Shown here: positions 40,704 to 57,781 of the stretch, piece by piece
How the letters are laid out: the number at the start of each line of letters is the position of its first letter
Position numbering within the stretch: position 1 is the first letter of the stretch
Assembly (NCBI GenBank): GCA_019637115.1
Contig: JAHBWH010000030.1
Location: 1-58,692, forward strand
Length of the DNA stretch: 58,692 nucleotides
From: Myxococcales bacterium
Lineage (GTDB): Bacteria > Myxococcota_A > Polyangia > Polyangiales > Houyiibacteriaceae
Direction of reading: 5' to 3'
The notes under the pieces: model-generated
The model's database searches: none
Seen by the model: the letters and a program-made list of their open reading frames with translations, nothing else
What the model was told of the DNA's origin: nothing
Translations under genes and position numbers: made by a program

Positions 40704-43700
40704 CTATGGAAAGCGGTGATCGGACGCCGCGTCGAGCAACGCTCGGCGCTCGGGGTGGCTCAGGAAGCCCGCGCGCCAGTCGGCGCGCCCGATCTGCTCC
40801 GCTCGATCGCGGAGCGACGCTGCGCCAGCGCTCAGCGTCGCCGCAGCTCCGCTCGCGTCACCGAGCGCGCGGCGAGCATATGCGAGGGCGAGCGGCACCA
40901 CGGCGTCCCCCTGAATCAGGCCACCGAGCGCGTCGAGCGTCGCCATTGCTCGCTCCGCGCGCGGCAACGCCTCCTGCGGGCGACCGAGGTCGACGAGCGC
41001 GAGAGCGTGGCGCGCGAGCGCCCACGCCTCGAGGCTCGGTGAGCTGCGCAAGAGCTCGACGGCTTCCCGAGCCGCGGCCTCCTCGCGCACGGGTGCCCCC
41101 TCGAGCCGCTCGAGGGCTGCCAGATGTGCCAGCGCCCACCCCGCGAGCCGCATGTTGCCGACGGCGCGGCACTCCGCGATAGCGTCGTCCAAGGTGCGAC
41201 GGGCTTCGTCCCGCGCGCCCGGCACGTGGGTGAGGATGTAACCGAGGTTCACCTTCACGTACGTGATCGCCTGTGGGGCGCTCATCGCCTCACAACGCGC
41301 GAGGTTGTCTCGTGCCACCCGCGCGCCCTCCGTGAAGTCTCCAAGCTCGGCATGGCACCACGCGAGCGTCGTACGCTCGAGCGAAGCGTTGCGTAGATCG
41401 CCCGCGCGCTCGAACGCTTCCACCGCCGGTGCGAGGTGATGAAGGAAGGTGGCGACATCGCCGACCATGCACGCCCGCACGCCCCGCACGTGATGGACCT
41501 GTCCGAGCGTGAGCGCGTCGAGACGCGATTCGTCCTCGGACAAGGCGGCGATGCGCGCGAGCACTCGGTCCGCTTCTTCGAAGCGACCCGCGAAGATGAG
41601 CTGAAACGCGCCCCGCGCGAGCGCGACGAGCTGCTCGGCCGCCGCGTCGGCGGCGGGTTCCGACGAGAGGATCTGCCGGAAGAGCGCGTCGACCGCCTCG
41701 AAGTCTGCGAGCCGCGCGCTCGCGACGGTCGCGCTGCCGAGCGCGCGATACCACGGACGAGAGCCACGCGGCAGCAGCTGCGAGGCCTCTACTCCCGCCT
41801 CACGTGCCCCGGTGTAGTCGCTCTTCCAGTAACGCGCGAGCGACTCGATCGCCCGTAGCGCGCCCCGTGCGGCGGACATCGTGCTGGCGGGGGTGCCGGA
41901 GACGTCGGGGCGGCCCGCGCGCTCGACGTCCATGGACGCGAACGCACGGTCGACGCGCGAGAGCGCGGCGTCGAGGTCGTTGCCCTCGAGGGCTTGCTCG
42001 GCAGCTCGCGAGAACCAGTGCGCGGCGTCCTGAGAATCACCGCCTCGGTCGAAGTGCTCGGCGAGCACGAGGGCGTCGTTCTCGCCCACCTCGCGGAGCC
42101 ACGCGCCCGCGAGCCGATGACCGAGCGCGCGGTCTTCGGTGGTGAGCAGCTCGTACGCGCCGTCGCGGACCAACGCGTGTCGGAAGCGCCACTCACGTTG
42201 ATTGGGAAACCGAGCGTTCGCGCTCGTGTTCACGACCTCTCGCTCCGCCAGCTCCTCCAGCCACGCATCCACGCTCACGCCTGCGTCTCCAATCAACGCC
42301 TCCACCCCTCCCGACCAGAAGACCTCGCCGAAGACGGCAGCGGCTCGCAGGACCTTTTTTGCGTCCGGGCCAAGTGCGTCGAGGCGGCTCTGCACCATGG
42401 CGAGCACCGTCTCGGGGAGGGCGCCAGCGCCCTCGGCCGTCGCGCGAATGAGCTCCTCCAAATAGAAGGCGTTGCCGGCCGCTCGGATCGCGAGCTCGTC
42501 GGCGACGGAGTCGTCGAGGTCCTCACCGAGCACCTGTCGCACGAGCTGGACACTCGCGCTCCTGCTCAGCGCGCCGAGTCGCACCTCCTGCACCGCATGC
42601 CGCGGCCAGAGCTCGGGGAAGCGGTCGTGCACCTCGGGGCGAGCGAGCGCGAGTACCATGAGCGGCCGTTCGGCCCCGCGCGAGAGGGCTGCGTCGATGA
42701 AGCGAACGGACGGCAGATCGCCCCAGTGAAGGTCCTCGAGGAGCACGAGAACGGGCTGAGCCTCCGTCTCGGTGACGACCCAATCCGTGAACGCGCGCTT
42801 CATCGCTTCACCGAGCAGCATCGGATCCTGTCGCGCCGCTTGGAGGGCGTCGTCATCGTGCTCGGCAACCGGGGCGCCCACGAGCTCGCAGAGGAAGAGC
42901 CAAACCCGCGCGAGCGCCTCGTCGGCCTGCGGAGGCGGCAGTGTGCTCTGCCGAGCCCCACGAGGCCGCGCCATCGTCGCGCCAGCGGAGCTCCTGAAGC
43001 GGCGCAGGAACCTCGCGTGGAGCGCTTGCTGCACGACGTCCGCGGGATCGCCGTCACGCACCCCCGCCCACCGGCGGATCGCGGGGGCGATGAGGGCGAA
43101 AGGGGACCCCGCGCTCAATACGTCGCCCTGGCCCTCCAGCAACGTGAACGCCTCGCCCCGCTGCCGGAGCGCGCGGAGCAGCTCGTACCGAAGACGCGAC
43201 TTGCCCATCCCGGCAGGCGCGGTGACGAGGACCACCGAGGCCGCCGGCTCTTCGACCGTGTGATCCCACGTGCTCGTGAGCACGCCGAGCTCGCGCCGTC
43301 GACCGACGGAGAGCGTCGGCCGACCGAGCAACGTCCGTGTCGCTTCTCGGGGCCGCTCGCCGAGCAGGCGTACCGAGCCACCGAGCGAGAGATCGAACCG
43401 CGCTTCGAACAGGGGGACAGTCGAGCTCTCGACGCGCACCTCACCCGTCGCGGTGGACTGCAACAGCGCCGCCGCCCGGTCGACCGCGTCTCCCACCGGG
43501 ACGCGACCGTCGCTCTCGGCTTGCCCCAGACCGATGGCCACCGCGACCTCGGGCAAGGCATGTCGCAATCCGAGCGCCACCCGGCCTGCGCGCGTCGCTT
43601 GGTCCATCGGTGCGCCCGGAGGCTCGACCGTGGCCACGAACGACCCCGGCGAGAGCCAGTGAAGGCTGCCTCCGCTCCGCTCCGCGGCACGCTCGAGCTC

Positions 43701-44669
43701 GCTCTTTCGATGTGCAACGGCCGGCGGAAGCGAGCCCACGATGACGCAACGAACACGACGCTCCGTACCGCTGAGCGAGGGCGTGAAGTGGCTCGACGTC
43801 GGCGCGTCGACCCGGCTCTCGGCCACGGTCTCGAGCGCCGCCAGGAGCGCGTCACCGTTCGCGAGTCGCTCGTTCGGGTCCTTCGTCAGACATCGGTCGA
43901 CGGTCTCGGCGAGGCCCGCCGGGAGATCGCGGCGCGCGGCGACCAGTGAAGGCGCGGGATCGAGGATGATCTTCGCGAGGAGCGCGACCATGTGTTGCGC
44001 GCGAAAGGCCGGCATGCCCGTGAGGCACTCATAGAGCACGACGCCGAACCCCCAGACGTCGGCGGCGGGGGTCAGCGCCTCGGAGCGCACCTGCTCGGGC
44101 GCCATATACGCTGGTGTACCGACGAGCGCCCCCGTCTGCGTCAGACGACGCCCATCGAAGATCGACGCAGCGCCGAGGTCCAACAGTTTCGCACGACGGA
44201 GATCCCCGTCGATGCAGAAGATGTTCGCGGGCTTGAGGTCTCGGTGAATGACGCCGTGCCGATGGAGCTCCCCTAGCGCGGATGCGATGCGGCGCGCGAA
44301 GACGATGACGTCGCCGAGAGGGAAAGGCGATTGATGTGCGGCCCGGGTGGGAAGGGTTCGGTCAGCGCGACCGCCGAGGTGGGCCCGCAGGTCCTGACCC
44401 TCGAGCCACTCCATGGCGAGGTAGGGCTCGCCCTGCCGTGAGACCCCATGCGAGACGTGCTCGACCAGCGCAGGATGACGGAGCTTCGCGAGGATGGTCG
44501 CCTCGCGGCCGAACCGCTCCTCCGCCCCCGGGTCGTCGCTCGCGATCACCTTCAGCGCAACGAGCTTGCCCGAGAGCTCGTCGCGCGCACGGTAGAGGCG
44601 CCCCATGCCCCCCATTGCGACTTGCGCTTCAACGCGGAAGCGTCCGTCGATCAACAGCTCTGAATGCAC
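40704..44669 (-). CDS. Ser/Thr protein kinase fused to cyclase-like module, AAA ATPase and TPR domain
   Basis: About 1321 residues. The kinase (residues of about 8-285) has AMGGMGRLYRA, VALKVIAS, VIHRDLKPANIF, LLDLGAAS (DLG in place of DFG) and GTPAYMAPEQ. Residues of about 310-450 resemble a degenerate class III cyclase homology module (PVGDAVDRAAALLQSTATGEVRV). Residues of about 460-760 are an AAA/STAND ATPase with Walker A APAGMGKSR and Walker B VLVLLEDLHWGDLPS. The remainder is TPR-like helices. This matches the large myxobacterial and actinobacterial kinase-ATPase-TPR signalling proteins. The GTG at 44669 has GAGG upstream and begins just before the kinase; an ATG at 44729 would add 20 residues. 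It is divergent from the FAD oxidoreductase. Confidence 0.9.
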   Translation of the reverse strand: MHSELLIDGRFRVEAQVAMGGMGRLYRARDELSGKLVALKVIASDDPGAEERFGREATILAKLRHPALVEHVSHGVSRQGEPYLAMEWLEGQDLRAHLGGRADRTLPTRAAHQSPFPLGDVIVFARRIASALGELHRHGVIHRDLKPANIFCIDGDLRRAKLLDLGAASIFDGRRLTQTGALVGTPAYMAPEQVRSEALTPAADVWGFGVVLYECLTGMPAFRAQHMVALLAKIILDPAPSLVAARRDLPAGLAETVDRCLTKDPNERLANGDALLAALETVAESRVDAPTSSHFTPSLSGTERRVRCVIVGSLPPAVAHRKSELERAAERSGGSLHWLSPGSFVATVEPPGAPMDQATRAGRVALGLRHALPEVAVAIGLGQAESDGRVPVGDAVDRAAALLQSTATGEVRVESSTVPLFEARFDLSLGGSVRLLGERPREATRTLLGRPTLSVGRRRELGVLTSTWDHTVEEPAASVVLVTAPAGMGKSRLRYELLRALRQRGEAFTLLEGQGDVLSAGSPFALIAPAIRRWAGVRDGDPADVVQQALHARFLRRFRSSAGATMARPRGARQSTLPPPQADEALARVWLFLCELVGAPVAEHDDDALQAARQDPMLLGEAMKRAFTDWVVTETEAQPVLVLLEDLHWGDLPSVRFIDAALSRGAERPLMVLALARPEVHDRFPELWPRHAVQEVRLGALSRSASVQLVRQVLGEDLDDSVADELAIRAAGNAFYLEELIRATAEGAGALPETVLAMVQSRLDALGPDAKKVLRAAAVFGEVFWSGGVEALIGDAGVSVDAWLEELAEREVVNTSANARFPNQREWRFRHALVRDGAYELLTTEDRALGHRLAGAWLREVGENDALVLAEHFDRGGDSQDAAHWFSRAAEQALEGNDLDAALSRVDRAFASMDVERAGRPDVSGTPASTMSAARGALRAIESLARYWKSDYTGAREAGVEASQLLPRGSRPWYRALGSATVASARLADFEAVDALFRQILSSEPAADAAAEQLVALARGAFQLIFAGRFEEADRVLARIAALSEDESRLDALTLGQVHHVRGVRACMVGDVATFLHHLAPAVEAFERAGDLRNASLERTTLAWCHAELGDFTEGARVARDNLARCEAMSAPQAITYVKVNLGYILTHVPGARDEARRTLDDAIAECRAVGNMRLAGWALAHLAALERLEGAPVREEAAAREAVELLRSSPSLEAWALARHALALVDLGRPQEALPRAERAMATLDALGGLIQGDAVVPLALAYARRALGDASGAAATLSAGAASLRDRAEQIGRADWRAGFLSHPERRALLDAASDHRFP

Positions 44670-44848
44670 GGCCTGAGCCTCGCACGAGTGGGGTCGGGAG
44701 CGGAAGCATCGTGACGCTCCCAGTCGCAAGAGGCGTCCGGCGCTCGTTAGAGCGGACTTTGCTGACGTTCGGGCGTGCCCTTGATAGCGTCGTCACGGCC
44801 CACGTCGCCCCGTATCGTTCGCGATTCGCGCGCACGAAGCACGTGGAT

Positions 44849-44854
44849 GGAGGG
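44849..44854 (+). promoter_or_regulatory. Shine-Dalgarno GGAGGG fixing the oxidoreductase start
   Basis: GGAGGG lies three bases before the ATG at 44858 and settles the start. An open frame extends upstream to 44336 antisense to the kinase gene. Confidence 0.75.
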
Positions 44855-44857
44855 AAT

Positions 44858-46390
44858 ATGCTGATCGAGAAACACATCGCGATCTTGGGAGGCGGCGTCG
44901 CAGGGCTGTCCGCCGCATACTTTCTTCACGACCGCTTCTCCGCAGATGAACGCACCATATTCAAATGCACGGTATTCGACATCAGCACGCGTCTTGGAGG
45001 CAATTGCCATAGCGCGTACCTCGGCGCGATTCCCTACACCGAACCGTTCGCCGACCTGGGAGTCAACGACTTCAACACCGAACGATACAAGATCTTCATG
45101 GAGGTCCTCGAACAGCTCGGACGCGATGGCTTTCCCGTACGCCACGCGCCGCTCATCGACACGACGACGTGGACCACCCCGAGCGGGTACCAGGGCCCGC
45201 TGGCCCGGACCTACACCGAAGAAGAGATGGCGCATTGGGAAGACCACCCCGACAGGCCGTGGTTGAAGAACATCGCGCTCGACTGGGACCGTTTTCAGAA
45301 CGTAGCGCGCCAGGTTCTGACGGATCCGAAGTACGCGACCATGAGCGTCGATGAGTTCATACGCGAGCAGCAGTACTCGACCGACTTCGCCGAGTACAAT
45401 CTGCTCGCGCGAATCAACGGCATGTATTATGTGAATGATCGCTCTCCCGGTTCGATGCCGATTCGCGCCGTGATGAGCTACTATCATCTTCAGGAGGGCA
45501 TCGGCGACGGCAAGACGACGGCGTCGCGTCGCGTACGAGCCCTCGCCGACACTCCGTCGCCGCGGCACTATTTCGTGAACGGCGCGAGCGACTGGATTCG
45601 TCAGCTCACGAGTTGCCTGGTCGCCCGCGGCGTCGAGTTTCGCCTCGGGGCCTCACCGACGGCCTACCTCGAAGGAGGGCGTGGATGGCGCGTGCTCTCG
45701 TCGGCCCAGCCGTCCTCCGGGCGCGAGAGCTTCGACCACGTGATCAGCGCGGTCTACGCCGACACCGTCAGCCGCGTCGTCGCGCTCGGCCTACCCCCGC
45801 TGATGAGCACGTTCCTCGCGCAGTTCGAATACTTCGACTCGATCGGAATCGTGCACGAGGACGTCTCGATGCTTCCACCGGACCCGAACGCCTGGAGCAC
45901 GTACAACATCCTGGTCTACCCACCCAATACGACCAGCCTCCGCCCCTACACGATCACCTACGTGGAGCGAAAGCACCACGGGCAGAACAGCAATGCGCCG
46001 CCGTATCTGACGCTGACGCCGTTCGGGGCGGTCGACGACGCGGGCATCCCCCAGATGATCGAGCTCCCGAGCAGCGACCGAGTCCGGGCGGTCACCTACC
46101 TGCGGCACAACACGCTCTCGGCGGAGGCCATGGCGGCTCAACGTTTCGTACGGGCGGCGCAGGGGCAGAACCAGCTCTGGTTCACCGGGGGTTGGACGAA
46201 CGGCGCCGGGCTCCACGAGGAGATCCTCGCGATGTCCAAGGAGATCGCGCTTCGAATCCGCAACATCTTCGTCATCGGAGAGCACGAAGAGGGTTACCTC
46301 GACGACGACCCGACCTACGTGCCCAAGCACATCCGCGACAGCTTCGATGACGTCGACGCGACGCCCTTCCCCGACGGCTTTTGGGGTTGA
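44858..46390 (+). CDS. FAD-dependent oxidoreductase, amine-oxidase-like (COG2907-like)
   Basis: 510 residues. The N-terminus HIAILGGGVAGLSAAYFL is a GxGxxG Rossmann FAD site followed by an acidic strand end (CTVFDISTRLGGN). The C-terminal FAD motif is LWFTGGWTNGAGLHEEILAMSKEIA. The layout resembles the NAD/FAD-binding amine-oxidase relatives of COG2907, although a second region (ADLGVNDFNTERYKIFMEVLEQLG) is diverged. The substrate is unknown. Base composition is visibly less GC-rich than the neighbours (codons such as TAT, AAT, ATT, CAT are frequent), suggesting recent transfer or different selection. It is convergent with the macroglobulin operon, with 40 bases between the stops. Confidence 0.88.
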   Translation: MLIEKHIAILGGGVAGLSAAYFLHDRFSADERTIFKCTVFDISTRLGGNCHSAYLGAIPYTEPFADLGVNDFNTERYKIFMEVLEQLGRDGFPVRHAPLIDTTTWTTPSGYQGPLARTYTEEEMAHWEDHPDRPWLKNIALDWDRFQNVARQVLTDPKYATMSVDEFIREQQYSTDFAEYNLLARINGMYYVNDRSPGSMPIRAVMSYYHLQEGIGDGKTTASRRVRALADTPSPRHYFVNGASDWIRQLTSCLVARGVEFRLGASPTAYLEGGRGWRVLSSAQPSSGRESFDHVISAVYADTVSRVVALGLPPLMSTFLAQFEYFDSIGIVHEDVSMLPPDPNAWSTYNILVYPPNTTSLRPYTITYVERKHHGQNSNAPPYLTLTPFGAVDDAGIPQMIELPSSDRVRAVTYLRHNTLSAEAMAAQRFVRAAQGQNQLWFTGGWTNGAGLHEEILAMSKEIALRIRNIFVIGEHEEGYLDDDPTYVPKHIRDSFDDVDATPFPDGFWG

Positions 46391-46430: not shown

Positions 46431-49400
46431 TCAGCGCACGACCATCGGGCGCGGCGCCAGGGCGCTCATCGCCTCGGGCTGCGCGGCCTCGTAGGCGACC
46501 ACGCCGAGACCACGCACGCTGCCCGCCGCGCGCCACCGCAACGGCAGCGGCAACGTCGCCTCTTGCTGCGGCTCCATCGGGGCCATCACGATCCGGAGGA
46601 AGCCCGGCTCGCGGCGCTCCACGCTGCGCACCATCCCGTTGCTCCGCAGCGCCGCGAGGAGACGCTCGTCGGGCTCGACGCCCGCCGGCAGCTGCAAGTC
46701 CAGCGTCGGCGCGTTCACACGCGCTCGCGCCCGCACCGAGAGCTCGAGCGCGGCGAGCTCGCCGACGCGGCCGACCTCCCCCGCGAGCGCGAGCCCGAGC
46801 GGCCCGTCTTCGCGCGCGTCGAAGGGCGCCGCGAAGACCGCCTCCGCGCGCGCGAGCACGGCGCCTCCGCTCGAGACGACCTCGACGCGGCGGCTCGCGC
46901 CCGCCGAGAGGCCGAGGTCGAGGGTGGCCGTGCCGCGCTCGAGCGTGATCTCCCGCCCGTCGACCCGCACACGCTCGGGCGCGCCCCCGAGCGCGCCGTA
47001 CGCGCCCGCCGCGAGCCACCAGAACGCCTCCTCGCCACCGCGACGCGCCACGACGGGCGCGTGAGGCGCGACCTGCCGGACGAGCCGCTCCGCGAGCGCG
47101 TCGTCCCCGATCGCCTTCGCGCCGAGCGCCAGCGCCAGGCTCGCCGCGAGGCGCTCGGAGAGCCCGGTCCGTTCGCCGCCGCCGACGAGCCCGTCGTCCG
47201 CGATCGCGTCCCGCGCCTTCGCGAGCATCGCGCGCGCGTGCCCGTCCCGCGGATCCGCGAGCAGCAGCGCGCCGGCCGCGCGCGCGAGCAGCGTCGGCTC
47301 ACCCGGTCGCTCGATCAGCGCGCGGCGCAGCTCGGGCAACGCCGCGCGGAGCAGCTCGGCGATGGGGTCGTGGACCTCGCCCGCCTCGTGCGCCGCGCCG
47401 CTCGTCGCGAGCGCGGCGGTCACCGCCGCGAGCATCCGGACGCGCCCCGCCTGCCCGTCCCGATCCTCGAAGGGCGGCAGGTTGTTCAGCCGCGCGACCG
47501 CGCGCTCGCGCGCCGCCGCGGCGACCGGGTCGGGCTCGCCGTCGTCCCCGACGAGCGCCGCGAGCGCGACGATCGCCGCGGCGCTCGAGAGCTTCGCCTC
47601 GCGCCCCTCGAACGAGCCATCGGGGCGCTGCGCGCGGAGCAGCCGCGCGCGGAGCGCCGGATCGAGCGCCCGCCCCGCGAGGGTCTCTGCCCAGGCGACG
47701 AGCGCCGGATCGTCGCGCCGCACGTCGGCGAGGTCCGGATCGGCGGCGAGCGCGTTCGGCGCCACCAGCACGAGCCGGCTCTGGACGCCGCGCGCGCCGC
47801 GGGGCACGTCGAAGCGTGTCGACCAGGTGCCCGCGAGGCCCGCGGCGCGGCGACGGATCGGGTGCCCGCCGCCGTCGACCGCGACGCGCCCCTCGATTCG
47901 CTGCAGCTCGCCCGCGGGCTCGCCGCCATGGACGACGACCCGCACGACGTGTTCGCCGGGGCTCGTGGCGCGCATCTCGACCTCGAAGCTCCGGCTCTCG
48001 CCCGCAGGGATCGGCACGGTGGAGGCGTCGAGCGCGAGCGCGACGCCCTCGCTCGTCAGCTCGAGGCGCGCGCTCGTGTCGCGCTCGCTCACGTTCGAGA
48101 GGTGGAGCGGGAAGCGGAGCGGCTCGTCGGTGCGGAGCCGGCTCGGCAGCACGAGGTCGGCGAGCACCGGCGCGCCCGCGCGCGCGGCGTCGGACGCGAC
48201 GGCGAGGTTGCCCGCGGCGTCGACGGCGAGCGCGACGACGCGCCAGCTCCGCGGCTCCGAGCCCACCGCGAGGCGGAGCTCGCCCTCCCCCCGGCCGATC
48301 ACGGCGCTCGTCGGCCGCGTTGGTCGCCGAAGCGCGAGCGCGTGGAGGTCGGGCTCTTGGCGCGGCGGCAGCGAGCCGAGCGCCGAGGTCGGCGTCTGAT
48401 CGGGCGGCGGCGCGATGTGCGCGTGCGGCGCCCCGAAGACGCCGGCCGCGAGGCCCAGGGTCGCGCGGCCGAGCTCGACGCCGCGGAGGCGCGCGACGAG
48501 CGCGTCCTCGCCGACCGCCGCCCCGTAGAGCGAGCCCGTCGGCAGGACGCGCGCGGTCGGATCGTAGACGTCGTCGGCGTTGCCGAAACGTCCGTCGGGG
48601 CCCGCGCTGACGAGCTCGTAGCCCGCGACGGGCTGCACCTGCCCGAAGCGCGCGCGCGCGGTTCGCACGAGGCGGAAGGGGCGCCCCCAGCCGTCGACCA
48701 AGAGCCCCGGACGAATGGAGCCCGCGCCGTCGACGTACCGGCCGCGGAGCTGCTCGACCCAGAGCGTCGGGTCGCCGGGCCGCGTCCACGGCAGGTCGAG
48801 CGCGCCCTGCTGCACGAACTGCCGCAGCGCGAGCAGGAGCTTGAAGAGGCGCTCGCGCGTGATGCGCCGCGCGACGGTGTCCCACGAGAACGAGCGGTCG
48901 AGGGCCTCGAGGCGCTCGATGGTGAGCGGCTCGCCGCCGAGCCCGGTCGCGCCCTCCCCGCCCAGGCTCGACGTCGGCAGCGACGCGAGGAGCTGGCGGT
49001 TGAAGGAGAAGCGCCCGCCGCGTTCGATGGCGACCTCGTCGAGCTGATCGGGCACTGCGGCGTCGATCCGTTGCTCGATGGCGCGGAAGAGGAGCGCGAG
49101 GCGACCCTCGACGAAGCGCGCGCTCGTCCGCCACGGATCGCGCAGGAGCCCATGCGCTTCCGGGGACGCCGGCTCGGGCGCGGGCTCGGCGCTGCGACCA
49201 CGCAGCACCGCGGGGGCCGCCACGTCGGTCGGCGTGCGCTCGGCGAGCACCGCCGCGAGCGTGGTGTCGTTGCGGGGGGCCCCGCGGAGGTCCGCGAAAG
49301 GCCCCGCCGCCGCGGCCTCGAGGTGCGCGCGCAGGGTGGTGTCCTCGCCGAGCGGCACGGCGAGCGAGGTCGCCGCCAGCCCACCGCGGAGGCGCGCCAC

Positions 49401-51521
49401 GACGGCGTCGCGGGCGCCCTCTGCGGCGAGCCCGAAGTCGGCGACGGGCACGCCCGCGAAGGCGCTCGCGAAGCCGCCCCTCACCTCGAGGCCCTGCGGG
49501 CCGACGAGCGGCCGCGCGCGGACGAGCAGCTCGCCATGCGTGCCGGCGTCGAGCGTGAAGCGTGCCCGCGTCTCGCGGCCGTCGACGACCTGCGTCGCGA
49601 GCGGGCGGAGGGCGGGCGCGCGCGCGAAGAGGGTCACGGTGACGGGCATGCCCGCGGCGCCCGGCGCGCGGTCGATCTCGACGGCAAGCTCCGCGCCTGG
49701 CGCGACGAGCGCTTGGGCGGCCCGGACTCGGAGGGAGGCGTCGGCGTCGACCGGCAAGCAGCGCCCCTCGGCCGTCTCTCCCTGCACGCTGACCACGACG
49801 TCGGTCGCGGACTCCCCGCCGCAGCGGTCGCCCTCCTTCACCGGGCCGACGCGCACGTCGAGCGCTGCGACGCCGCCCTCGGAGGTGACGCCGCTGGCGC
49901 GCCCCACGCGCGGCCCCTCGAGCGACACGGGCACGTTGGCGGGCGCGGGCGCGCCGTCCATGGTCGTCACGCGCACGAACACACGCGCGCCGAGGCCGGG
50001 GACGAGCGCCGCCCCCTCGATCGAGAGGCGCGAGGCGTAGAGGCGCCCGCTGACACGCACGGTCGCGGCGCCCGCGCCAGTCCCGACGCCAGCGCGCCCC
50101 GCCTGCACGATCATCGTCGTGTCGCCGTACTCGCCGCCGATCCGCGGCGCCTGCCACTCGAGCGAGGCGCGGCCGCGCGCGTCGGTGATCGTGAAGCGCT
50201 CACGCGGATCATCGAGGCGCTCGTCGAGCGGGATCGGTCCGCCCCCGAGCCGCAGCCGCGTCTCGGGCACCGGCCGGCCATCGGCGCGCCGCACGACCAC
50301 GTCGATCCGCACGCGCTCGCCGGGCAGCGCGAGGTGCTTGCTCGGCTGCACCTGAACGAGCAGCGGCGGCTCGCTCGACGCGCTGACGCTCGCCGTCCAG
50401 CTCGCGCGCACGCGCCGCGCCTCACCAGGGGCGCGCTCGCGCGTCGACTCGTCGCCGGGGCTCAGCGCGTCCACGCGCAGCGGCGCCTGTGCGTCCCGCG
50501 GGACGCGGAAGGCGTGCGCGTAGACCCCTCGGCCGTCGGTGCGTGCAACGACGGGCGCGCCCAAGGGGCCACGCGCGTCGTGGAGCGTGAGGCGGATCTC
50601 CTGGCCCGAGAGCCCCTCGGCGCCGCTCGCGTAGCGCCCGAAGACGGGAAGCTCTCCGGGCGAGGTGGCGGCCTCGGCCCCGAAGAGCGAGAGGGTCCGC
50701 GGCTCGAGCGTCGTGACGCGCAGCTCGAAGCGCCGGCTCACGCCGCGACGCGCGCGCAGCTCGATGGTCGCGCCGAACGAGCCCGGCGCGTCCGACGGGA
50801 CGGGGAGCTCGAGGAGCGCGCGGCCACGCGCGTCCGTAGTGAGCGAGAGGACTCCATCGCCATCCTCCCCGCGGCGCCGCGTGAGAGAGGTCGCGACGCG
50901 CACCTCGGCGCCGGGCGCCGGGCGGAGCCGGTCGAGCCCGACGACCTCGTACGCGACGAGCGCGAGCCGCAGCGTGTCGCCGCGCGCGACCGAGAGGCTC
51001 CCCTCGATCTGCAGCTCGACGCCGGTGACGTCGCCCGCCTGGACCGGTCGACGCCCGGCGACCTGGGCGCTCGCCGTGTCGCCGAGGAGCGACAGGACGC
51101 CGAGGAGGAGCGCGGCCCGCGTCACGAGCCCCCGCGACGGTCCGAGCGTCGCTGGCCTCCCCAGCCGCCGCGCCGGGCGGGCGCCGGGCGCGGTCTCGTG
51201 GGAGGCGGCCCCGCGGGGCGACTCGAAGGTGTGGTGGTTCCTCATGGTGCGCGAATCGGCGGGGCGGGTGTCGGTGGTGCGGACGTCGGCGGTGCGGATG
51301 TCGGCGGTGCGGGCGGCGGCGGTGCAGACGTCGGCGGTGCAGACGTCGGTGGTGCGGACGTCGGTGGTGCGGACGTCGGTGGTGCGGGCGGCGGCGGTGC
51401 AGACGTCGGTGGTGCGGGCGTCGGTGGTGCGGGCGGCGGCGGTGCAGACGTCGGCGGTGCAGACGTCGGCGGTGCGCGGGTCGACGGTGCCCGTCGCGCG
51501 CGAGCGGATCGGGCGGCTCAT
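46431..51521 (-). CDS. alpha-2-macroglobulin-like giant exported protein, paralogue A
   Basis: About 1696 residues. The ATG at 51521 overlaps the upstream stop by ATGA and has an ideal AGGAGG (51529-51534) seven bases away. It gives an N-terminus of 15 pentapeptide units (RTADV, CTAAA, RTTDV) and then a signal-like segment VTRAALLLGVLSLLGDTASAQ. A GTG at 51125 would start exactly at that signal peptide and is a real alternative. The body is a series of beta-rich macroglobulin-like domains, a helical segment with GEPLTIERLEALDRSFSWDT, a pseudopilin-like DGWGRPF with SAGPDGRFGNADDVYDP, and a C-terminal toroid-like region (LLRAQRPDGSFEGRE). No CGEQ thioester is present. It probably acts on the periplasmic or outer surface. 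The function is inferred only. Confidence 0.8.
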   Translation of the reverse strand: MSRPIRSRATGTVDPRTADVCTADVCTAAARTTDARTTDVCTAAARTTDVRTTDVRTTDVCTADVCTAAARTADIRTADVRTTDTRPADSRTMRNHHTFESPRGAASHETAPGARPARRLGRPATLGPSRGLVTRAALLLGVLSLLGDTASAQVAGRRPVQAGDVTGVELQIEGSLSVARGDTLRLALVAYEVVGLDRLRPAPGAEVRVATSLTRRRGEDGDGVLSLTTDARGRALLELPVPSDAPGSFGATIELRARRGVSRRFELRVTTLEPRTLSLFGAEAATSPGELPVFGRYASGAEGLSGQEIRLTLHDARGPLGAPVVARTDGRGVYAHAFRVPRDAQAPLRVDALSPGDESTRERAPGEARRVRASWTASVSASSEPPLLVQVQPSKHLALPGERVRIDVVVRRADGRPVPETRLRLGGGPIPLDERLDDPRERFTITDARGRASLEWQAPRIGGEYGDTTMIVQAGRAGVGTGAGAATVRVSGRLYASRLSIEGAALVPGLGARVFVRVTTMDGAPAPANVPVSLEGPRVGRASGVTSEGGVAALDVRVGPVKEGDRCGGESATDVVVSVQGETAEGRCLPVDADASLRVRAAQALVAPGAELAVEIDRAPGAAGMPVTVTLFARAPALRPLATQVVDGRETRARFTLDAGTHGELLVRARPLVGPQGLEVRGGFASAFAGVPVADFGLAAEGARDAVVARLRGGLAATSLAVPLGEDTTLRAHLEAAAAGPFADLRGAPRNDTTLAAVLAERTPTDVAAPAVLRGRSAEPAPEPASPEAHGLLRDPWRTSARFVEGRLALLFRAIEQRIDAAVPDQLDEVAIERGGRFSFNRQLLASLPTSSLGGEGATGLGGEPLTIERLEALDRSFSWDTVARRITRERLFKLLLALRQFVQQGALDLPWTRPGDPTLWVEQLRGRYVDGAGSIRPGLLVDGWGRPFRLVRTARARFGQVQPVAGYELVSAGPDGRFGNADDVYDPTARVLPTGSLYGAAVGEDALVARLRGVELGRATLGLAAGVFGAPHAHIAPPPDQTPTSALGSLPPRQEPDLHALALRRPTRPTSAVIGRGEGELRLAVGSEPRSWRVVALAVDAAGNLAVASDAARAGAPVLADLVLPSRLRTDEPLRFPLHLSNVSERDTSARLELTSEGVALALDASTVPIPAGESRSFEVEMRATSPGEHVVRVVVHGGEPAGELQRIEGRVAVDGGGHPIRRRAAGLAGTWSTRFDVPRGARGVQSRLVLVAPNALAADPDLADVRRDDPALVAWAETLAGRALDPALRARLLRAQRPDGSFEGREAKLSSAAAIVALAALVGDDGEPDPVAAAARERAVARLNNLPPFEDRDGQAGRVRMLAAVTAALATSGAAHEAGEVHDPIAELLRAALPELRRALIERPGEPTLLARAAGALLLADPRDGHARAMLAKARDAIADDGLVGGGERTGLSERLAASLALALGAKAIGDDALAERLVRQVAPHAPVVARRGGEEAFWWLAAGAYGALGGAPERVRVDGREITLERGTATLDLGLSAGASRRVEVVSSGGAVLARAEAVFAAPFDAREDGPLGLALAGEVGRVGELAALELSVRARARVNAPTLDLQLPAGVEPDERLLAALRSNGMVRSVERREPGFLRIVMAPMEPQQEATLPLPLRWRAAGSVRGLGVVAYEAAQPEAMSALAPRPMVVR
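51252..51476 (-). repeat. 15-bp coding minisatellite, about 15 units
   Basis: On the plus strand the unit is close to GTCGGTGGTGCGGAC, repeated about 15 times without interruption. Because 15 is a multiple of three, any change in copy number keeps the frame of paralogue A. The encoded units follow [RC]T[AT]D[VA] with a recurrent CTAAA variant. Confidence 0.9.
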
Positions 51522-54500
51522 GAGCGAGCCTCCTCGGTGGAGACGACGCCGGCCGACGCGACGGGGCCGAACCGCTCGATGGGCGGCAGGGGCGGCGGGG
51601 GTGGTGGCGGCGGCGGCGTGGGTGGCGGCGAGGCCGAGCCGTCGCGCGCCTCGGGCTCGTCTCCCTCGTCGGGGATCGTCAGCGCCCGCGAGGGCAGCAC
51701 CGCGGTCGCGCGCGCCGCGTCGCCGACCGGCTGCGCCTCGTCGTAGAGGCTGACGCCGAGCCCACGCAGCGTCCCACCCACGCTCCAGCGGAGCGGGAGC
51801 GGGATCCGGACGAAGCCGCCCGGCGCGATGGGCCGGAGGGGGAGGCGCAGCGTGCGCCCTTCGACGGTCGCCTGTCCGCGCGCGGCGCCGCGGAGCGCGT
51901 CGCGCGTCGGCTCGTCGAGCTCGGTGCCAGCGGGCAGATCGATCTCGACCACCGGACGGCCGAGCACGCGCGCCTCGCGGCTGCGCACGACGAGCACGAG
52001 CCCCGCGCGGGCATCGCGCGGCCCCGTCGGCCCCTCGACGTCGAGCTGCGCGCCGATCGTCCGTGCCGGGGGCGCGTCCCAAGGCCGCCCGTAGCGCAGG
52101 TCGACGAAGGCGAGCGCGAACGCGCCCGCGTCCTCGAGGCGGATCACGTGGCGCCCCGCGCGGCCGGCGCCCTCGATCGTGGCGACGCGGATCGCGCTGC
52201 CCTCCTCGGGCGCGCGGAGGGTGAGCGCTTGGCCGTCGAAGCTGGCGCGCACGCGCGCGTCGACGGTCCCGCCCGCGAGGGTCGCGGCGGCCGCGGTCGC
52301 GAACGCGCGACCCTCGAGCGGCCAGCGCTCTGCCTCTCCCGCGATGGCGACGAGCGCGCGCAAGAAGGGGAGCCCACGGGGCGCCTCGCCGACTCCTGCG
52401 TACGCGAGCGCGACGAGCGCCGTCGGCTCGACGCGGGCCGCGATCTGACCCGCGCTCGACGGCTCCTCGAGGAAGGCCTGCTCGCCCGCCTCGCTCTCGA
52501 AGCGCACCACCGCGCGGCTCGCGCGGCGCAGGAGCTCGCGCGCGCGCTCGCCGCCACCCGTGAGCGCGAGCGCCGCCGCGACGCGCGCGTGCAGCACGGG
52601 CTGGTCCGAGATCTCGACCGCGCCGCTGCCCGCGCCCGTGCGCAAGCGCTCGACGAGGGTCGCGACGATCGGCGCGACCGCGGGGCGCGCGCTCGTCCGG
52701 TGCGCTGGCGCGAGCGAGAGGAGCACGCGCGCGTAGAGATCCGCGCGGCCCGGGTCGGGGCTGCGCGGCTCCTCTCCGAGCGTGTGGGTCACGGCGCGGA
52801 GCGCGCGCCGGATGACGGCGTCGTCCACCGTCGCGTCGCGCCAGAGCGTCGAGACGGCGCGACCGAGCTCGATCGGGTTGCCGTAGATGTCGCGCTCTTC
52901 GACTGGATCCTGGGCGCGCACGAGCGCTCGCGCCCGCGCGAGCTCCGGCTCGGGGATCGCCTCGCCGCGCAGGGCGAGCCCCCAGCCGAGCACCGTGTGG
53001 CCCTCGGCGTAGCTCGCGAGCTCGCCGAAGAGCGCGGTCGCGGGGACGATGCGCAGCTCGGCCGGCCCGCGCTCGCTCGCGTCGGCGGGCACCTCGAAGC
53101 GGAGCTCGGCCGCGCCGCGCCCGGGCTCGGTGAGCACCTCGCGCCGCTCGCGCACGAGGCGCGCGTCGGGATAGATGGTCAGGGGTCGGCGCACGGCGTC
53201 GAGGCCCTGGCCGTCGCTCGCGCGCAGGGCGCTCACGACCAGCCGCCCGCTGCCCGCGCTCCGCGCCGAGATCGAGACGGTGCGCTCGACGGCGTCGCGG
53301 GGCGGCACGGTCACTCGGATGGCCTCGGGCAGGCCGACGTCGACGCCCTCGGCCTCGATCACGACGCGCACCTCGAGCGCCGCGGCGCTGCGGTTCTGCA
53401 CGCGCAACGGGAGGCGCACGGCGTCGCCGACGGTCGCGAAGGGCGGGACGGGCGCGTCGACCGTCGCCTCCTGATCGACACGCAGCTCGCCGCTCGCGGT
53501 CGTCACCCAGCCGCTCTCGGTCCAGGCGATCGCCTCGACGCGGTAGGTCGTGAGCGCGTCGGCCAGGCGCACGGGCACGGTCGTGGCCCCATCGAGCGGG
53601 ACCTCCGCGACGAAGTGGAGCGTCGCCGGGAAGTCCTCGCGCACGAGCGCGCTCAAGCTCGCCATCACCGAGGGCGTCGTCGGTCCGCGCTGCTGTCGCT
53701 CGTCCTCCGCGCGGTCGGCCGCGGCCATCTCCATCGCCATGGCCGGCTCGGCGGGCGGGGCCGGCGCGGCGGACGCGCGGGTGCGCGCGAGTGCTCCGCC
53801 GAGCCCGATTGTACCCTGACCGACACCGCCACCTCCCCGCCCCGTGCCCGAGAGGCCGAGCCCGTTGATCGACTCTTCCTCCGCGAACGCAACCCCGTCG
53901 TAGTCCGCGTCGTCGCCCTCGCTCGCGCTCGCGGTCACGGTGCGCACGCGCTGCTCGTCCCGCGCCGCGAGGCTGACGCTCGCGAAGGCTCGCATCATCG
54001 CGGCGAGCGTCGTCGGCCCCGCCGCGAGCGTAGACAGGCGCTTCATCAGGGCGTCCTCACCCGACGCGACCGCGTAGGGGGTGCCCTCGGGCACGACGCG
54101 CTGGAACGGATCACGGACGTCGTCGTTCGTCCCGAGCCGGCCGTCGGCTCCGGGCGAGACGAGCTCCCACGTCGGCGCGCGCTCGCTGAAGACGATACGC
54201 GGGCTCGTGCTCGGGCGGAGCACGAAGGGGCGCCCCCATGGGTCGAGGAGCGCTTGCGGGCTGATGACGCCGAGCTGTACGAGACGCGAGAGCCACCGCT
54301 CGGGCGGCTCGCCGGCCGAGGCGCGCGCCGCGCCCGGGTCGTCGACGTTCGTCAGCCGCGACAGGTGCGAGAGCAGCGTGACGAGCCGCTTGCGCGCGAT
54401 GCGGGCCGCGACGGCGTCGAAGGAGAAGCTCGGATCGGCGGCGCGCACCATCGCGAGCGTCACGGGCTGGCCGCCGAGGTTCACGGGCGTGTAGCTGCGC

Positions 54501-56776
54501 TCGCGACGCAAGGTCGCGAAGACCTCGGGATCGAAATCGAGCCGACCGCCGCGCTCGGCGAGCACGCCGCGGCGTTGCGCGGCGTCGTGTCCGCGCTGCT
54601 CGACGATGCGCTCGAGCTGGATCGCGATCTGACCGACCTGGCGCCGCAACACCTCGTCGCGCTGCGCGACGGGATCCCGAAGGGTTCCGTCCTGGTGTCC
54701 CCCCTCGTGGCGCGAGCTCCACGGGGGCGTCACGAGCGGCGGCGCGCGGTGCGGCTTCGTGTCGGGGGAGAGGCCCGCGGTGAGCGCCGTACGGACGAGG
54801 AGCGCGGCGTCCTCCGTGTCCGGTCGCGCCGCAGCCTCGCGGATCGCGCCCTGCATCCACGCGAGCGAGAAGGGCTCTTCGCCGCCGTGCATCATCAGAT
54901 CGCGGACGACGACGGCCGCCCACGCCCGCGGCGTCGGGCCGCTCGGGCGGAGCCGCACGGGCGCCGTCTCTTGGACCAAGAAGACGTCGCGCCCCTGAGG
55001 CGTCACGGGCTCGAGCGCGAGCGCGAAGGCGTCGGCCGGCCGCACGAGGACCGCGTCGCTCGTGCCGACGCCGAGCGCGGATCCACCCGGCACGTCCAGC
55101 GCGTGGCGCGCGTCGTGCGGGAGCTCGGGGCGCGCGCGGATCTGCACCACGCCGCTCGCGCCAGCCGGCAACCGCAGCGTCGCGGTCGCGCCCTTGGCGT
55201 GCGTCGACGCGATGACGCGGCCGAAGGCCAGGGCCTCGACCAGCACGTCGCGGCCGCGCACCTCGGGGTGCCGATCGAGCGCGACGACGAGCTCGCCGCC
55301 GGGCTCGACGACGCGCGCGCGGACTCGCGCCCGCACGCGCGCGTCGGGGCTGACCGGGATGCATACGCGCGCGAAGGCCGTGCGCGGTGTCATCACCTCG
55401 ACGTCCACGCGGGTCGCGAAGCGCCCTGGGCACTCCGCCCCGAGCGGCCCCGCGGCGCCGTCGGCCACGCGCAGCGGCACCACCGCGAGGCCGTGGCGAT
55501 CGATGCGCACGCGGGCCTCACCGCGCGGCACCACCGCGCCGCGGACCACGAGCTCGGTCCCGGCTGGCGCGGGTTGCCCGCGCGGATCGGTGACGGCGAA
55601 GATCGCCTCGGACTCCACCTCGGGCACGAGCCCGCCGTTCTCGGCGGTGGCCTCGACGCGCCACTCGACGCGCGAGAGCAGGAACGACGCCGAGACGTGG
55701 AGCACGCCGTGCGCGGGGTGAGCGACGCGCGCGACCACCTGCTCGGTCACGACGTCCCCCGCGAGGTAGGCCGGCGCCTGCATCCGGATGGGCGCGACGC
55801 CGGCGTCGTCGGTGCGCAGCTCGGTCGTCTGACCGCCGAGCGTGAGGTGCACCGTGGCGCCCGCGATGGGCACGCCCGAGGGCGTGCGCACCGAGACGCG
55901 ACCAGTGACCGCGCCGGACGGCGCGACGACCACCTGATCGACGGTCGCCTCCACGAGCAGCCGCTCGACTGTGCGACGCGCGACCGTGAAGCCCGCCGTT
56001 TGCACGACCTGCGCCACGGAGTCGTCGAGCGTGACGCGCACGTGGTAGGTGCCGTCCGCCGCGCTCGCGGGGAGCGCGACGTCGAGCGCCGCGACGCCGC
56101 CGTCGCTCGCGGGGCGGCGCTCGTCGGTGAGGGGGCGTCCCGAGGGGTCGGCGACCACGACCCGCAGCGCGCGCCCGCGCACGGGCGCGCCGTCGCTGAG
56201 CCGATGCAGCCGCGTCCACACGTGCACCGTCTCCCCCGGCTCGTAGCGACGCCGATCCGTGCGGACGTCGACCCCGAAGGGTTGCTGTAGCGAGAGCGAG
56301 TGCTCGAAGGTCCGGGTCTGCCCCTTCCCTCGCACCTCGATCTGCAGCTGCGGCGACGCGAAGCTCCGCTCCGGGACGTCGACCGAGACCGTGAAGCGCC
56401 CGTCCCCGCCCGCGCGCACGCTCGCCTCCGCGACGACCTGCCACTGCTGCTGCTGGCGATCGCGTAGGCGCGCGACCACCTCGGCGCCCGAGAGCGGCGC
56501 GAGCTCGGCGAGCCCCTGCACCTCGTAGGCGGTGCCGGCGAAGGTCAGCGCCTCGCCGTAGCGCGGCATGAGGTGCCCGTGCAGGGAGACCTCGAGGCCC
56601 TGCGCCTCGGCGCTCGCGGCCCCCAGCGCGGCGAGCGCGGCGAGCGCGGCGACGAGCGCCGCGCCGAGGTCGAAGCGCATGGTGCGCCTGGGACGACGCT
56701 GACCCGTGCGGGGGTCGGAGAGCGCTGGAAGGTGAAGCGGGCGGACGTGGCGATGCGCGAAGCGGCGTTGGCTCAT
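51518..56776 (-). CDS. alpha-2-macroglobulin-like giant exported protein, paralogue B (MG2 domain)
   Basis: 1752 residues. A signal peptide core MRFDLGAALVAALAALAALGAASAEAQ begins at residue 33; the longer ATG at 56776 has GGGGAG at good spacing (56782-56787), the inner ATG at 56680 does not. An MG2-like domain is clear near residue 170 (DVRTDRRRYEPGETVHVWTR). Further beta domains follow, then DPSFSFDAVAARIARKRLVTLL, a pseudopilin-like DPWGRPF with SPGADGRLGTNDDVRDP, an A2M-like strand set (VPVRLADALTTYRVEAIAW) and a helical C-terminal part. No CGEQ thioester is visible. The tail is Pro-rich ([13 protein letters not shown]). It overlaps paralogue A by four bases, so the pair is translationally coupled. 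Confidence 0.85.
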   Translation of the reverse strand: MSQRRFAHRHVRPLHLPALSDPRTGQRRPRRTMRFDLGAALVAALAALAALGAASAEAQGLEVSLHGHLMPRYGEALTFAGTAYEVQGLAELAPLSGAEVVARLRDRQQQQWQVVAEASVRAGGDGRFTVSVDVPERSFASPQLQIEVRGKGQTRTFEHSLSLQQPFGVDVRTDRRRYEPGETVHVWTRLHRLSDGAPVRGRALRVVVADPSGRPLTDERRPASDGGVAALDVALPASAADGTYHVRVTLDDSVAQVVQTAGFTVARRTVERLLVEATVDQVVVAPSGAVTGRVSVRTPSGVPIAGATVHLTLGGQTTELRTDDAGVAPIRMQAPAYLAGDVVTEQVVARVAHPAHGVLHVSASFLLSRVEWRVEATAENGGLVPEVESEAIFAVTDPRGQPAPAGTELVVRGAVVPRGEARVRIDRHGLAVVPLRVADGAAGPLGAECPGRFATRVDVEVMTPRTAFARVCIPVSPDARVRARVRARVVEPGGELVVALDRHPEVRGRDVLVEALAFGRVIASTHAKGATATLRLPAGASGVVQIRARPELPHDARHALDVPGGSALGVGTSDAVLVRPADAFALALEPVTPQGRDVFLVQETAPVRLRPSGPTPRAWAAVVVRDLMMHGGEEPFSLAWMQGAIREAAARPDTEDAALLVRTALTAGLSPDTKPHRAPPLVTPPWSSRHEGGHQDGTLRDPVAQRDEVLRRQVGQIAIQLERIVEQRGHDAAQRRGVLAERGGRLDFDPEVFATLRRERSYTPVNLGGQPVTLAMVRAADPSFSFDAVAARIARKRLVTLLSHLSRLTNVDDPGAARASAGEPPERWLSRLVQLGVISPQALLDPWGRPFVLRPSTSPRIVFSERAPTWELVSPGADGRLGTNDDVRDPFQRVVPEGTPYAVASGEDALMKRLSTLAAGPTTLAAMMRAFASVSLAARDEQRVRTVTASASEGDDADYDGVAFAEEESINGLGLSGTGRGGGGVGQGTIGLGGALARTRASAAPAPPAEPAMAMEMAAADRAEDERQQRGPTTPSVMASLSALVREDFPATLHFVAEVPLDGATTVPVRLADALTTYRVEAIAWTESGWVTTASGELRVDQEATVDAPVPPFATVGDAVRLPLRVQNRSAAALEVRVVIEAEGVDVGLPEAIRVTVPPRDAVERTVSISARSAGSGRLVVSALRASDGQGLDAVRRPLTIYPDARLVRERREVLTEPGRGAAELRFEVPADASERGPAELRIVPATALFGELASYAEGHTVLGWGLALRGEAIPEPELARARALVRAQDPVEERDIYGNPIELGRAVSTLWRDATVDDAVIRRALRAVTHTLGEEPRSPDPGRADLYARVLLSLAPAHRTSARPAVAPIVATLVERLRTGAGSGAVEISDQPVLHARVAAALALTGGGERARELLRRASRAVVRFESEAGEQAFLEEPSSAGQIAARVEPTALVALAYAGVGEAPRGLPFLRALVAIAGEAERWPLEGRAFATAAAATLAGGTVDARVRASFDGQALTLRAPEEGSAIRVATIEGAGRAGRHVIRLEDAGAFALAFVDLRYGRPWDAPPARTIGAQLDVEGPTGPRDARAGLVLVVRSREARVLGRPVVEIDLPAGTELDEPTRDALRGAARGQATVEGRTLRLPLRPIAPGGFVRIPLPLRWSVGGTLRGLGVSLYDEAQPVGDAARATAVLPSRALTIPDEGDEPEARDGSASPPPTPPPPPPPPPLPPIERFGPVASAGVVSTEEARS

Positions 56777-57010: not shown

Positions 57011-57781
57011 TCAGCGCGCCCAGCGCCAGTCGATCCCGGGGACGACCTCTACGTGAACGTGGTTGGCGTGGGCGTCGTCGTGGTGCGGGGTGACGACGAC
57101 CTGGAAGAGGTCCGCGTCGATCGCGGCGCAGACGAGCTGGCGCAGCGTCGCCGAGGCCTCGGGCTCGTCGAGGGGAGGATCGCAAGGAGGCGCGCCGCGC
57201 TCGCGCCAGGACCAGTCTTCGAGCACGTCGAGGACGGTGCCGTCGTCACGCTCGAAGAAGCGAGGGTCGACCGCGAGGCCGCGCGCGTGCCCGCTCGGCG
57301 CGCCCGTGGAGCGCACGCGCGCCGCGGGGCGCAGCGCAGAGAGGTGGCGCACCTTCCGCACGCCGACGGCGCGGAGCGCGGGCGCCCAGGCGTGGAGGGC
57401 GAGCACGAGCCGGCAGTCCATCACGCGGTGGACCTCGCGGCGGCCCTCGAAGATCCACTCGACCCCGCCGACGGGGCCCTCGATGACGAGCGCGCCCTCG
57501 ACCGCGTCGTGCGGGGTCTGGGTGACCGGCAAGGAGAGCTCCGCGACCCGGGCGAGACAGGCCGCTTCGTCGAGCGCGACGTGGTCCGAGGGGCCGAGGG
57601 CCGGCAGGCCCGGCGCGCCCATGCCTCGGTCCGGCTCGGGGGCCGCGAGCGTCGCCTCGGTCGACGCTCGCGCGGCTCGCTCGTCGCCTTCGGACGCCGC
57701 GAGCCGCTTGCCAGCGGTCGGCCCGGCAGGGGCGCCGCAGGCGAAGAGCCACGCGAGGGCGATGGGGAGCCGTCGCCTCAT
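57011..57781 (-). CDS. extensin-like/M15-type lipoprotein
   Basis: 256 residues. The signal peptide MRRLPIALAWLFACGAPAG-like N-terminus (residues 1-19) has a lipobox (LFAC). The C-terminal 180 residues match the extensin-like C-terminal domain, a relative of M15 peptidases: MDCRLVLALHAWAPALRAV, SGHARGLAVDPRFF (His/Asp pair) and NHVHVEVVPGIDW (HVHVE). These keep the SxHxxGxAxD and HxH metal-binding pattern, so it may be a zinc D,D/L,D-peptidase acting on peptidoglycan (inference). It lies upstream of the macroglobulin genes on the same strand, with a 234-base gap that favours a separate promoter for them. Confidence 0.85.
   Translation of the reverse strand: MRRRLPIALAWLFACGAPAGPTAGKRLAASEGDERAARASTEATLAAPEPDRGMGAPGLPALGPSDHVALDEAACLARVAELSLPVTQTPHDAVEGALVIEGPVGGVEWIFEGRREVHRVMDCRLVLALHAWAPALRAVGVRKVRHLSALRPAARVRSTGAPSGHARGLAVDPRFFERDDGTVLDVLEDWSWRERGAPPCDPPLDEPEASATLRQLVCAAIDADLFQVVVTPHHDDAHANHVHVEVVPGIDWRWAR

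What the first reader, a model, noticed from the sequence alone, without database searches (positions are those of the whole stretch)
46431..56776. Coupled pair of giant macroglobulin-like proteins without thioester and with a pseudopilin-like segment
Both have MG-like beta domains, a matching helical block (SFSWDTVARRI / SFSFDAVAARI) and a segment of the form DxWGRPF ... S-x-G-x-DGR-x-G-x-x-DDV-x-DP. That segment resembles the C-terminal Ca-binding part of type II secretion pseudopilins (GspG). Neither has CGEQ. So they are unlikely to trap proteases like A2M and may instead be a secreted or surface-assembled two-component complex.
Basis: partly seen in the sequence, partly recalled or inferred. 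Interest (0 to 1): 0.7.

Follow-up and report, generated by a model that had tools for sequence, protein, structure and literature searches.

The report
Macroglobulin pair carrying pseudopilin-like calcium domains
Two adjacent, translationally coupled bacterial genes encode giant exported cousins of the immune proteins alpha-2-macroglobulin and complement C3, and each carries a calcium-binding domain related to a secretion-system pilus protein at the place where its cousins carry their protease trigger.

Summary
P1 (51518-56680) and P2 (46431-51521, both minus strand) are paralogous alpha-2-macroglobulin (A2M) superfamily proteins without a thioester. The P1 model superposes on Salmonella A2M (Z 22) and C3/C5 (Z ~20). 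The shared block folds confidently (pLDDT 86); its second half matches all four GspG structures best (EpsG Z 8.4). Both aspartate calcium ligands of GspG are invariant in 32/32 homologues. The block plus a disordered, hypervariable linker sits inside MG6, in the slot of A2M's bait and of the C3/C5 anaphylatoxin.

The pair is conserved across families of one Myxococcota order, usually with P2 starting on P1's stop codon. Some genomes hold two pairs; one family mostly holds a single gene. Outside the order, five of five long relatives with the insert keep an intact GCxEQ thioester, so the insert is not tied to thioester loss.

"Unlikely to trap proteases" does not follow: thioester-less MagD traps non-covalently. 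Best mechanism: a calcium-braced, protease-triggered heteromeric trap or switch. Anatomy is well supported (about 0.9); mechanism is inferred (about 0.35).

The parts
51518..56680 (-). P1, first gene of the pair: exported A2M-superfamily protein, 1720 aa, no thioester (ORF open from 56776)
   Evidence: Pfam MG2 E 3.9e-12 and A2M E 3.5e-9; model Z 22 to Salmonella A2M
56603..56680 (-). P1 Sec-type signal peptide, about residues 1-26 (no lipobox)
   Evidence: sequence MRFDLGAALVAALAALAALGAASAEAQ, by inspection; hydrophobic N-termini in most relatives
55994..56263 (-). P1 MG2 domain, residues 140-229
   Evidence: Pfam PF01835 E 3.9e-12
54761..56599 (-). P1 chain of MG domains up to the N-terminal part of MG6, residues 28-640
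   Evidence: AlphaFold model, pLDDT mostly 70-97; A2M/C3/C5 matches
53945..54718 (-). P1 inserted block, residues 655-912: helical N-terminal half of unknown relationship plus GspG-like half
   Evidence: alignment A1; model pLDDT 86, pTM 0.83
54041..54424 (-). P1 GspG-like domain, about residues 753-880
   Evidence: VIA-align: EpsG 4lw9 Z 8.4, model residues 99-226; hhalign to myxococcotal GspG prob 98%
54119..54157 (-). P1 calcium loop SPGADGRLGTNDD, residues 842-854; D846 and D854 match the GspG calcium ligands D117 and D125
   Evidence: ligands from PMC3396595
53630..53947 (-). P1 hypervariable disordered Gly/Ala/Glu-rich linker, about residues 912-1017, at the bait position
   Evidence: pLDDT about 30; gap fraction 0.55-0.59 in residues 921-1000
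53360..53593 (-). P1 MG6 C-terminal part and MG7 (Pfam A2M), residues 1030-1107
   Evidence: Pfam PF00207 E 3.5e-9; VREDFPATL matches VRxxFPET of A2Ms
52241..53113 (-). P1 region at the TED position (about residues 1190-1480), thioester absent
   Evidence: alignment with GCxEQ A2Ms; no Pfam TED match; fold not predicted
51517..51536 (-). GGAGG ribosome-binding site and ATGA overlap of P1 stop and P2 start (translational coupling)
   Evidence: similar arrangement in most of 13 other pairs
46431..51521 (-). P2, second gene of the pair: paralogous A2M-superfamily protein, 1696 aa, no thioester
   Evidence: Pfam A2M E 0.0015
51256..51476 (-). 15-bp minisatellite (14.7 copies) in frame between the P2 start codon and its signal peptide
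51066..51131 (-). P2 signal peptide, about residues 131-152
   Evidence: sequence GLVTRAALLLGVLSLLGDTASAQ, by inspection; most relatives have it directly after the start
48396..49193 (-). P2 inserted block, residues 777-1042
   Evidence: alignment A1
48501..48893 (-). P2 GspG-like domain, about residues 877-1007
   Evidence: aligned to P1's modelled domain
48570..48608 (-). P2 calcium loop SAGPDGRFGNADD, residues 972-984
48060..48290 (-). P2 MG6 C-terminal part and MG7 (weak Pfam A2M match)

Best explanation
P1 and P2 are a conserved, translationally coupled pair of exported A2M-superfamily proteins of one Myxococcota order. Each carries a GspG (major pseudopilin)-like domain with a calcium loop, inserted in MG6 in the slot that holds the bait region in A2M and the anaphylatoxin domain in C3/C5. 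In P1 the domain is followed by about 100 disordered, fast-changing residues. They share ancestry with thioester A2Ms that carry the same insert, and have most likely lost the thioester. Most likely mechanism (inferred): the two proteins act as one heteromeric, non-covalent A2M in the periplasm or on the surface. The calcium-braced GspG-like domain is a folded plug or spacer beside the bait linker. A protease that cuts the linker frees MG6, the ring changes shape, and the protease is caged or a signal is passed to the partner, as in thioester-less MagD. Supported by computation: fold, insertion site, calcium-ligand conservation, pairing, coupling, duplication history, absence of thioester. Inferred: complex formation, calcium binding, cleavage of the linker, trapping.
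For: A2M membership: Pfam MG2 and A2M; profile to E. coli and Salmonella A2M structures E 2e-20 to 3e-18; P1 28-1185 model pLDDT 82.7, Z 22 to Salmonella A2M and about 20 to C3, C5 and CD109. GspG-like insert: only GspG chains in PDB to E 10; block model pLDDT 86, pTM 0.83; all four GspG at Z 7.0-8.4, next rows (type IV pilins) 3.8 and below; profile-profile 98%, still 93% with the calcium loop removed, shuffled-column scores far lower. Calcium aspartates invariant 32/32 (ligands PMC3396595). Slot: the C5 and C3 beta chains align to model residues 2-646 and the block starts there; flanks resembling VDEAxxAL and VRxxFPETL of A2Ms. Linker disordered and hypervariable. Pairing and coupling. Tree: first, second and single genes each one clade at SH-aLRT 100, A and B pairs mirrored. 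Thioester relatives with the same insert. Trapping without thioester is known for MagD (PMC5764988).
Against: No TED or bait-region Pfam match in P1 or P2. P2's linker is short, so only P1 has a long bait-like stretch. Nothing shows cleavage, calcium binding or P1-P2 contact. No conserved neighbours point to a defence role. Fast change in a linker is also expected of any spacer. Foldseek E-values for the GspG match are poor (1.9, rank 1); the fold claim rests on VIA-align plus profiles.
Confidence: 0.5

Rival explanations
1. Secretion-system adaptor: the GspG-like domain docks on the type II secretion pseudopilus or type IV pilus machinery, and the macroglobulin chains hold or escort exoenzymes at the outlet.
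For: GspG-like soluble fold that holds the best-conserved part of the protein; GspG genes are common in the class (33 of 39 genomes).
Against: The hydrophobic N-terminal helix and prepilin signal of pilins are absent; the alignment starts at about GspG residue 27. No conserved neighbour beside the pair. The same insert occurs in thioester A2Ms, which points to an A2M role.
Confidence: 0.15
2. Structural envelope or surface scaffold: MG domains form rigid arms and the calcium loop stiffens a hinge; no protease function.
For: No thioester; TED region diverged with no Pfam match; the calcium loop is the most conserved element; P1 has a proline-rich C-terminal tail.
Against: The A2M-type MG arrangement is kept, including the MG6 slot and a disordered linker, which a scaffold would not need.
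Confidence: 0.25
3. The segment is only a PERCAL-type calcium motif (G-x-D-G-x-x-[GN]-[TN]-x-D-D) that arose on its own; no kinship with GspG.
For: P1 and P2 match PERCAL exactly; the motif occurs in unrelated proteins such as bacterial heme peroxidases (PMC3396595). Helices alone give no profile match.
Against: Profile match remains 93% without the calcium loop; helix, short helix, DxWG hairpin and loop come in GspG order and superpose.
Confidence: 0.1

Closest known systems
Type II bacterial A2M, MagD of Pseudomonas aeruginosa
   Same: A2M-superfamily MG protein with a bait slot and no CXEQ thioester; the precedent for trapping without a thioester (PMC5764988)
   Different: MagD lies in a six-gene mag operon with MagA, MagB and MagF partners; here the partner is a paralogous macroglobulin, and a GspG-like domain sits in the bait slot
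Type I bacterial A2M (E. coli YfhM/ECAM, Salmonella A2M)
   Same: MG arrangement, Z about 22
   Different: Thioester and membrane anchor in type I (PMC4498604); neither seen here. No GspG-like insert is mentioned in the passages read on ECAM
Complement C3/C5
   Same: A folded domain inserted in MG6 at the bait position (anaphylatoxin there, GspG-like here), Z about 20
   Different: Different inserted folds; C3 has a thioester; no convertase-like partner known here
GspG/EpsG/PulG major pseudopilins of type II secretion
   Same: Soluble-domain fold and calcium loop with both Asp ligands
   Different: No prepilin signal or hydrophobic N-terminal helix; domain embedded in a 1700-residue protein
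Thioester A2Ms of other Myxococcota found here (L127-L131)
   Same: MG2 and A2M domains, mostly A2M_BRD, and the GspG-like segment between BRD and MG7
   Different: They keep GC[FL]EQ and a recognisable TED domain; whether any is part of a tandem pair was not checked in detail

Membership tests
A2M superfamily | Chain of MG domains in the A2M/C3 arrangement | tested here: met
   Pfam MG2 and A2M in P1; model Z 22 to Salmonella A2M over about 600 residues
A2M superfamily | Bait region inside MG6 cleaved by proteases | tested here: inconclusive
   Slot conserved and filled by GspG-like domain plus disordered linker; no Pfam A2M_BRD match; cleavage not tested
A2M superfamily | CUB and helical TED domain followed by C-terminal MG domain | tested here: inconclusive
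   Profile of the C-terminal half matches A2M and C3 structures only around MG7; C-terminal half not modelled
Type I (thioester) A2M | CxEQ thioester | tested here: not met
   No CxEQ in P1 or P2; no thioester-like GC.EQ in the pair members scanned
Type II A2M (MagD group) | A2M fold without thioester | tested here: met
Type II A2M (MagD group) | Encoded in a mag-type operon with MagA, MagB and MagF partners | tested here: inconclusive
   No gene conserved beside the pair across the loci examined; mag partner families were not searched for by name
GspG pseudopilin (T2SSG, PF08334) | GspG soluble fold with calcium loop | tested here: met
   (predicted structure)
GspG pseudopilin (T2SSG, PF08334) | Score above Pfam cut-off | tested here: not met
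   13 of 32 members match at E up to 1, best E 0.0033; P1 block 14.9 bits against cut-off 21
GspG pseudopilin (T2SSG, PF08334) | Prepilin signal and hydrophobic N-terminal helix | tested here: not met
   Domain is internal; alignment starts at about GspG residue 27
PERCAL calcium motif | G-x-D-G-x-x-[GN]-[TN]-x-D-D | tested here: met
   GADGRLGTNDD in P1, GPDGRFGNADD in P2 (definition)
PERCAL calcium motif | Binds calcium | not testable with these tools
   needs calorimetry or a structure

The most novel reading that the evidence does not exclude
A separate class of bacterial macroglobulins in which a pseudopilin-derived, calcium-dependent folded domain replaced or joined the bait, making a calcium-gated, two-subunit protease sensor; the GspG-like domain would be a bacterial counterpart of the anaphylatoxin domain of complement, exposed or released on cleavage.
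Probability: 0.15. Interest if true: 0.85.

Novelty: new variant of a known kind. Interest (0 to 1): 0.62.

Why it matters
The MG6 slot of the A2M superfamily decides what each member does: a bait in A2M, an anaphylatoxin in C3/C5. Finding a pilus-protein domain there in bacteria shows that the slot accepts unrelated folded domains in bacteria too. The coupled pair without thioester, next to relatives with thioester and the same insert, gives a natural series in which the loss of covalent trapping and the gain of a partner can be compared. No paper in the searched library mentions macroglobulin and pseudopilin together.

Tried and rejected
Pfam and NCBIfam on the full-length proteins gave no GspG match at E<1; it appeared only with the cut block and with profiles. 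Chance or motif-only explanation: disfavoured by the profile test without the calcium loop and by shuffles. Conserved neighbours: the widest shared neighbours were generic Ser/Thr kinase-like ORFs in 10 loci at varying positions. N-terminal half of the block: no profile match to GspG (prob 0.5%) and barely covered by the structure search, so its origin is unknown; absence proves nothing. Plasmid collection: no match. Two relatives searches failed on the server. Long plus-strand ORFs over both genes (1727 and 1380 aa) were judged high-GC antisense by-products because the minus-strand frames are the conserved ones.

Full report
Observation. Two large minus-strand genes lie end to end. P1 spans 51518-56680 (ORF to 56776) and P2 spans 46431-51521. 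P2's ATG overlaps P1's TGA behind a GGAGG, and most of 13 other pairs show a similar GGAGGTG...ATGA, GTGA or TGATG junction. The two proteins are 30% identical over 924 residues.

What the proteins are. Pfam finds MG2 and A2M domains in P1 and a weak A2M match in P2. A profile of 26 homologues matches E. coli and Salmonella A2M structures at E 2e-20 to 3e-18, with insect TEP1, human A2M and C3 after them. The AlphaFold model of P1 28-1185 (mean pLDDT 82.7, pTM 0.76) has A2M-superfamily proteins as its top structural matches: Salmonella A2M Z 22, C3, C5 and CD109 about 20. So they are A2M-superfamily members by fold and sequence.

The inserted block. Homologues were collected by whole-genome searches. 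The block (P1 655-912) aligned over 32 sequences has invariant D, W, G and D residues. A profile of it finds four PDB sequences down to E 10, all of them GspG (best E 0.014). Alone it folds at pLDDT 86 and pTM 0.83. In the second-look structural alignment the four GspG entries score Z 8.4, 7.8, 7.7 and 7.0; the next entries are type IV pilins at 3.8 and lower. Foldseek itself ranks GspG first but with E 1.9. Against an alignment of GspG from Myxococcota genomes the second half of the block gives 98% probability; with the calcium loop cut off it still gives 93% and score 43, against at most 15 for 60 column-shuffled controls; the helices alone give nothing. The profile also picks up short pilin-like ORFs with prepilin-type signals in other genomes. 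The kinship therefore covers the DxWG hairpin and calcium loop securely and the helix by fold only.

Calcium. In the E. coli GspG structure 3G20 calcium is held by P114, D117, V119, T122 and D125 (PMC3396595). The matching P1 residues D846 and D854 are Asp in 32 of 32 sequences; the T122 position is T, N or S. The loop also fits the PERCAL motif defined in that paper. Binding itself is untested.

Where it sits. In the model, strand 559-567 (P1 586-594, the WAAVVVRD region) is followed by the block, then about 105 residues at pLDDT near 30, then the strand of VREDFPATLHF. In the thioester A2Ms these flanks read VDEAxxAL and VRxxFPETL. The isolated beta chains of C5 and C3 align to model residues 2-646, so the block begins about where those chains stop, i.e. 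where the anaphylatoxin starts (that the beta chain ends before the anaphylatoxin, and that bait and anaphylatoxin share this place in MG6, is established knowledge of the family). The linker is the most gap-rich internal part of the family and the calcium loop the most conserved.

Distribution and history. In the window's own genome a second pair is split over the ends of contigs C420 and C161. Within the order, 49 of 144 sampled genomes match the block profile at E 1e-3, some only through short pilin-like ORFs; families coded f1, f3, f4, f5 and f43 hold pairs about 5 kb apart, often two pairs, while f8 genomes hold mostly one single gene. Named records are MAGs of Sandaracinaceae, Polyangiaceae and other Myxococcota. 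A tree of 44 sequences puts first genes, second genes and single genes each on one branch at SH-aLRT 100, and the two pair types (A and B) split in the same way in both. The simplest reading is that one duplication made the pair and the pair was later duplicated as a unit; the root is placed on the single genes by choice. No other gene is conserved beside it.

Thioester relatives. A phylum-wide search gave long hits outside the order. The five full-length ones fetched (L127-L131) all carry an intact GC[FL]EQ, Pfam TED, MG2 and A2M, most also A2M_BRD, and the GspG-like segment between the BRD and MG7. In a separate sample of A2Ms from the phylum most lack the segment; three with weak GspG-profile matches (L136, L137, L155) also have GCFEQ. 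So the insert marks a minority lineage of A2Ms and is not tied to the absence of the thioester. That the thioester was lost in the pair, rather than never present, is inferred from its wide presence in the superfamily.

Mechanism. The absence of a thioester does not exclude protease trapping: MagD of P. aeruginosa lacks CXEQ and retains TEV protease after cleavage of an engineered bait (PMC5764988). I favour a heteromeric, non-covalent A2M whose P1 linker is the bait and whose GspG-like domain is a calcium-braced plug beside it. The coupling of the genes implies co-production of both chains; contact between them is inferred. Rivals are a secretion-system adaptor and a structural scaffold. The pilus-type assembly suggested by the word pseudopilin is unlikely, since the hydrophobic N-terminal helix is missing.

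Novelty. No paper in the searched library holds both 'macroglobulin' and 'pseudopilin', which is weak evidence since most subscription papers are not held. I rate it a new variant of a known kind: A2M superfamily, with a new resident in the bait slot and a paralogous partner.

Noticed in passing
window 51256-51476: A 15-bp minisatellite (14.7 copies) lies in frame between the coupled P2 start codon and its signal peptide, adding about 75 residues; the P2 gene in locus L041 has a different repeat (FLRAA units) at the same place.
   Followed up: partly
L127-L131, L136, L137, L155: Thioester-bearing A2Ms of other Myxococcota carry a GspG-like segment in the bait slot; I found no description of these.
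   Followed up: partly
G000 contigs C420 (end) and C161 (start); loci L053, L054: The window's genome holds a second, diverged copy of the pair, broken across two contigs.
   Followed up: yes
L086, L087, L088: Short ORFs with pilin-like N-termini (prepilin-type signals in L087 and L088) and a C-terminal DPWG...GPD segment close to the block; pilin-like proteins of unknown role.
   Followed up: no
window 53630-53947; also L057, L052, L072, L131: Gly-rich stretches such as GTGRGGGGVGQGTIGLG in the linker of P1 proteins; a similar composition follows the GspG-like segment in the single-copy and thioester relatives.
   Followed up: partly
window 57011-57781 (-): Extensin-like C-terminal domain protein (Pfam PF06904, E 4.7e-10) upstream of P1; not found conserved beside other pairs.
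   Followed up: no
window 44336-46390 (+) and 40704-44729 (-): A predicted FAD/NAD-binding oxidoreductase and a Ser/Thr kinase with AAA domain flank the pair on the other side.
   Followed up: no
window 46563-51746 (+) and 52148-56290 (+): Very long antisense ORFs (1727 and 1380 aa) over both genes, probably by-products of high GC content.
   Followed up: no
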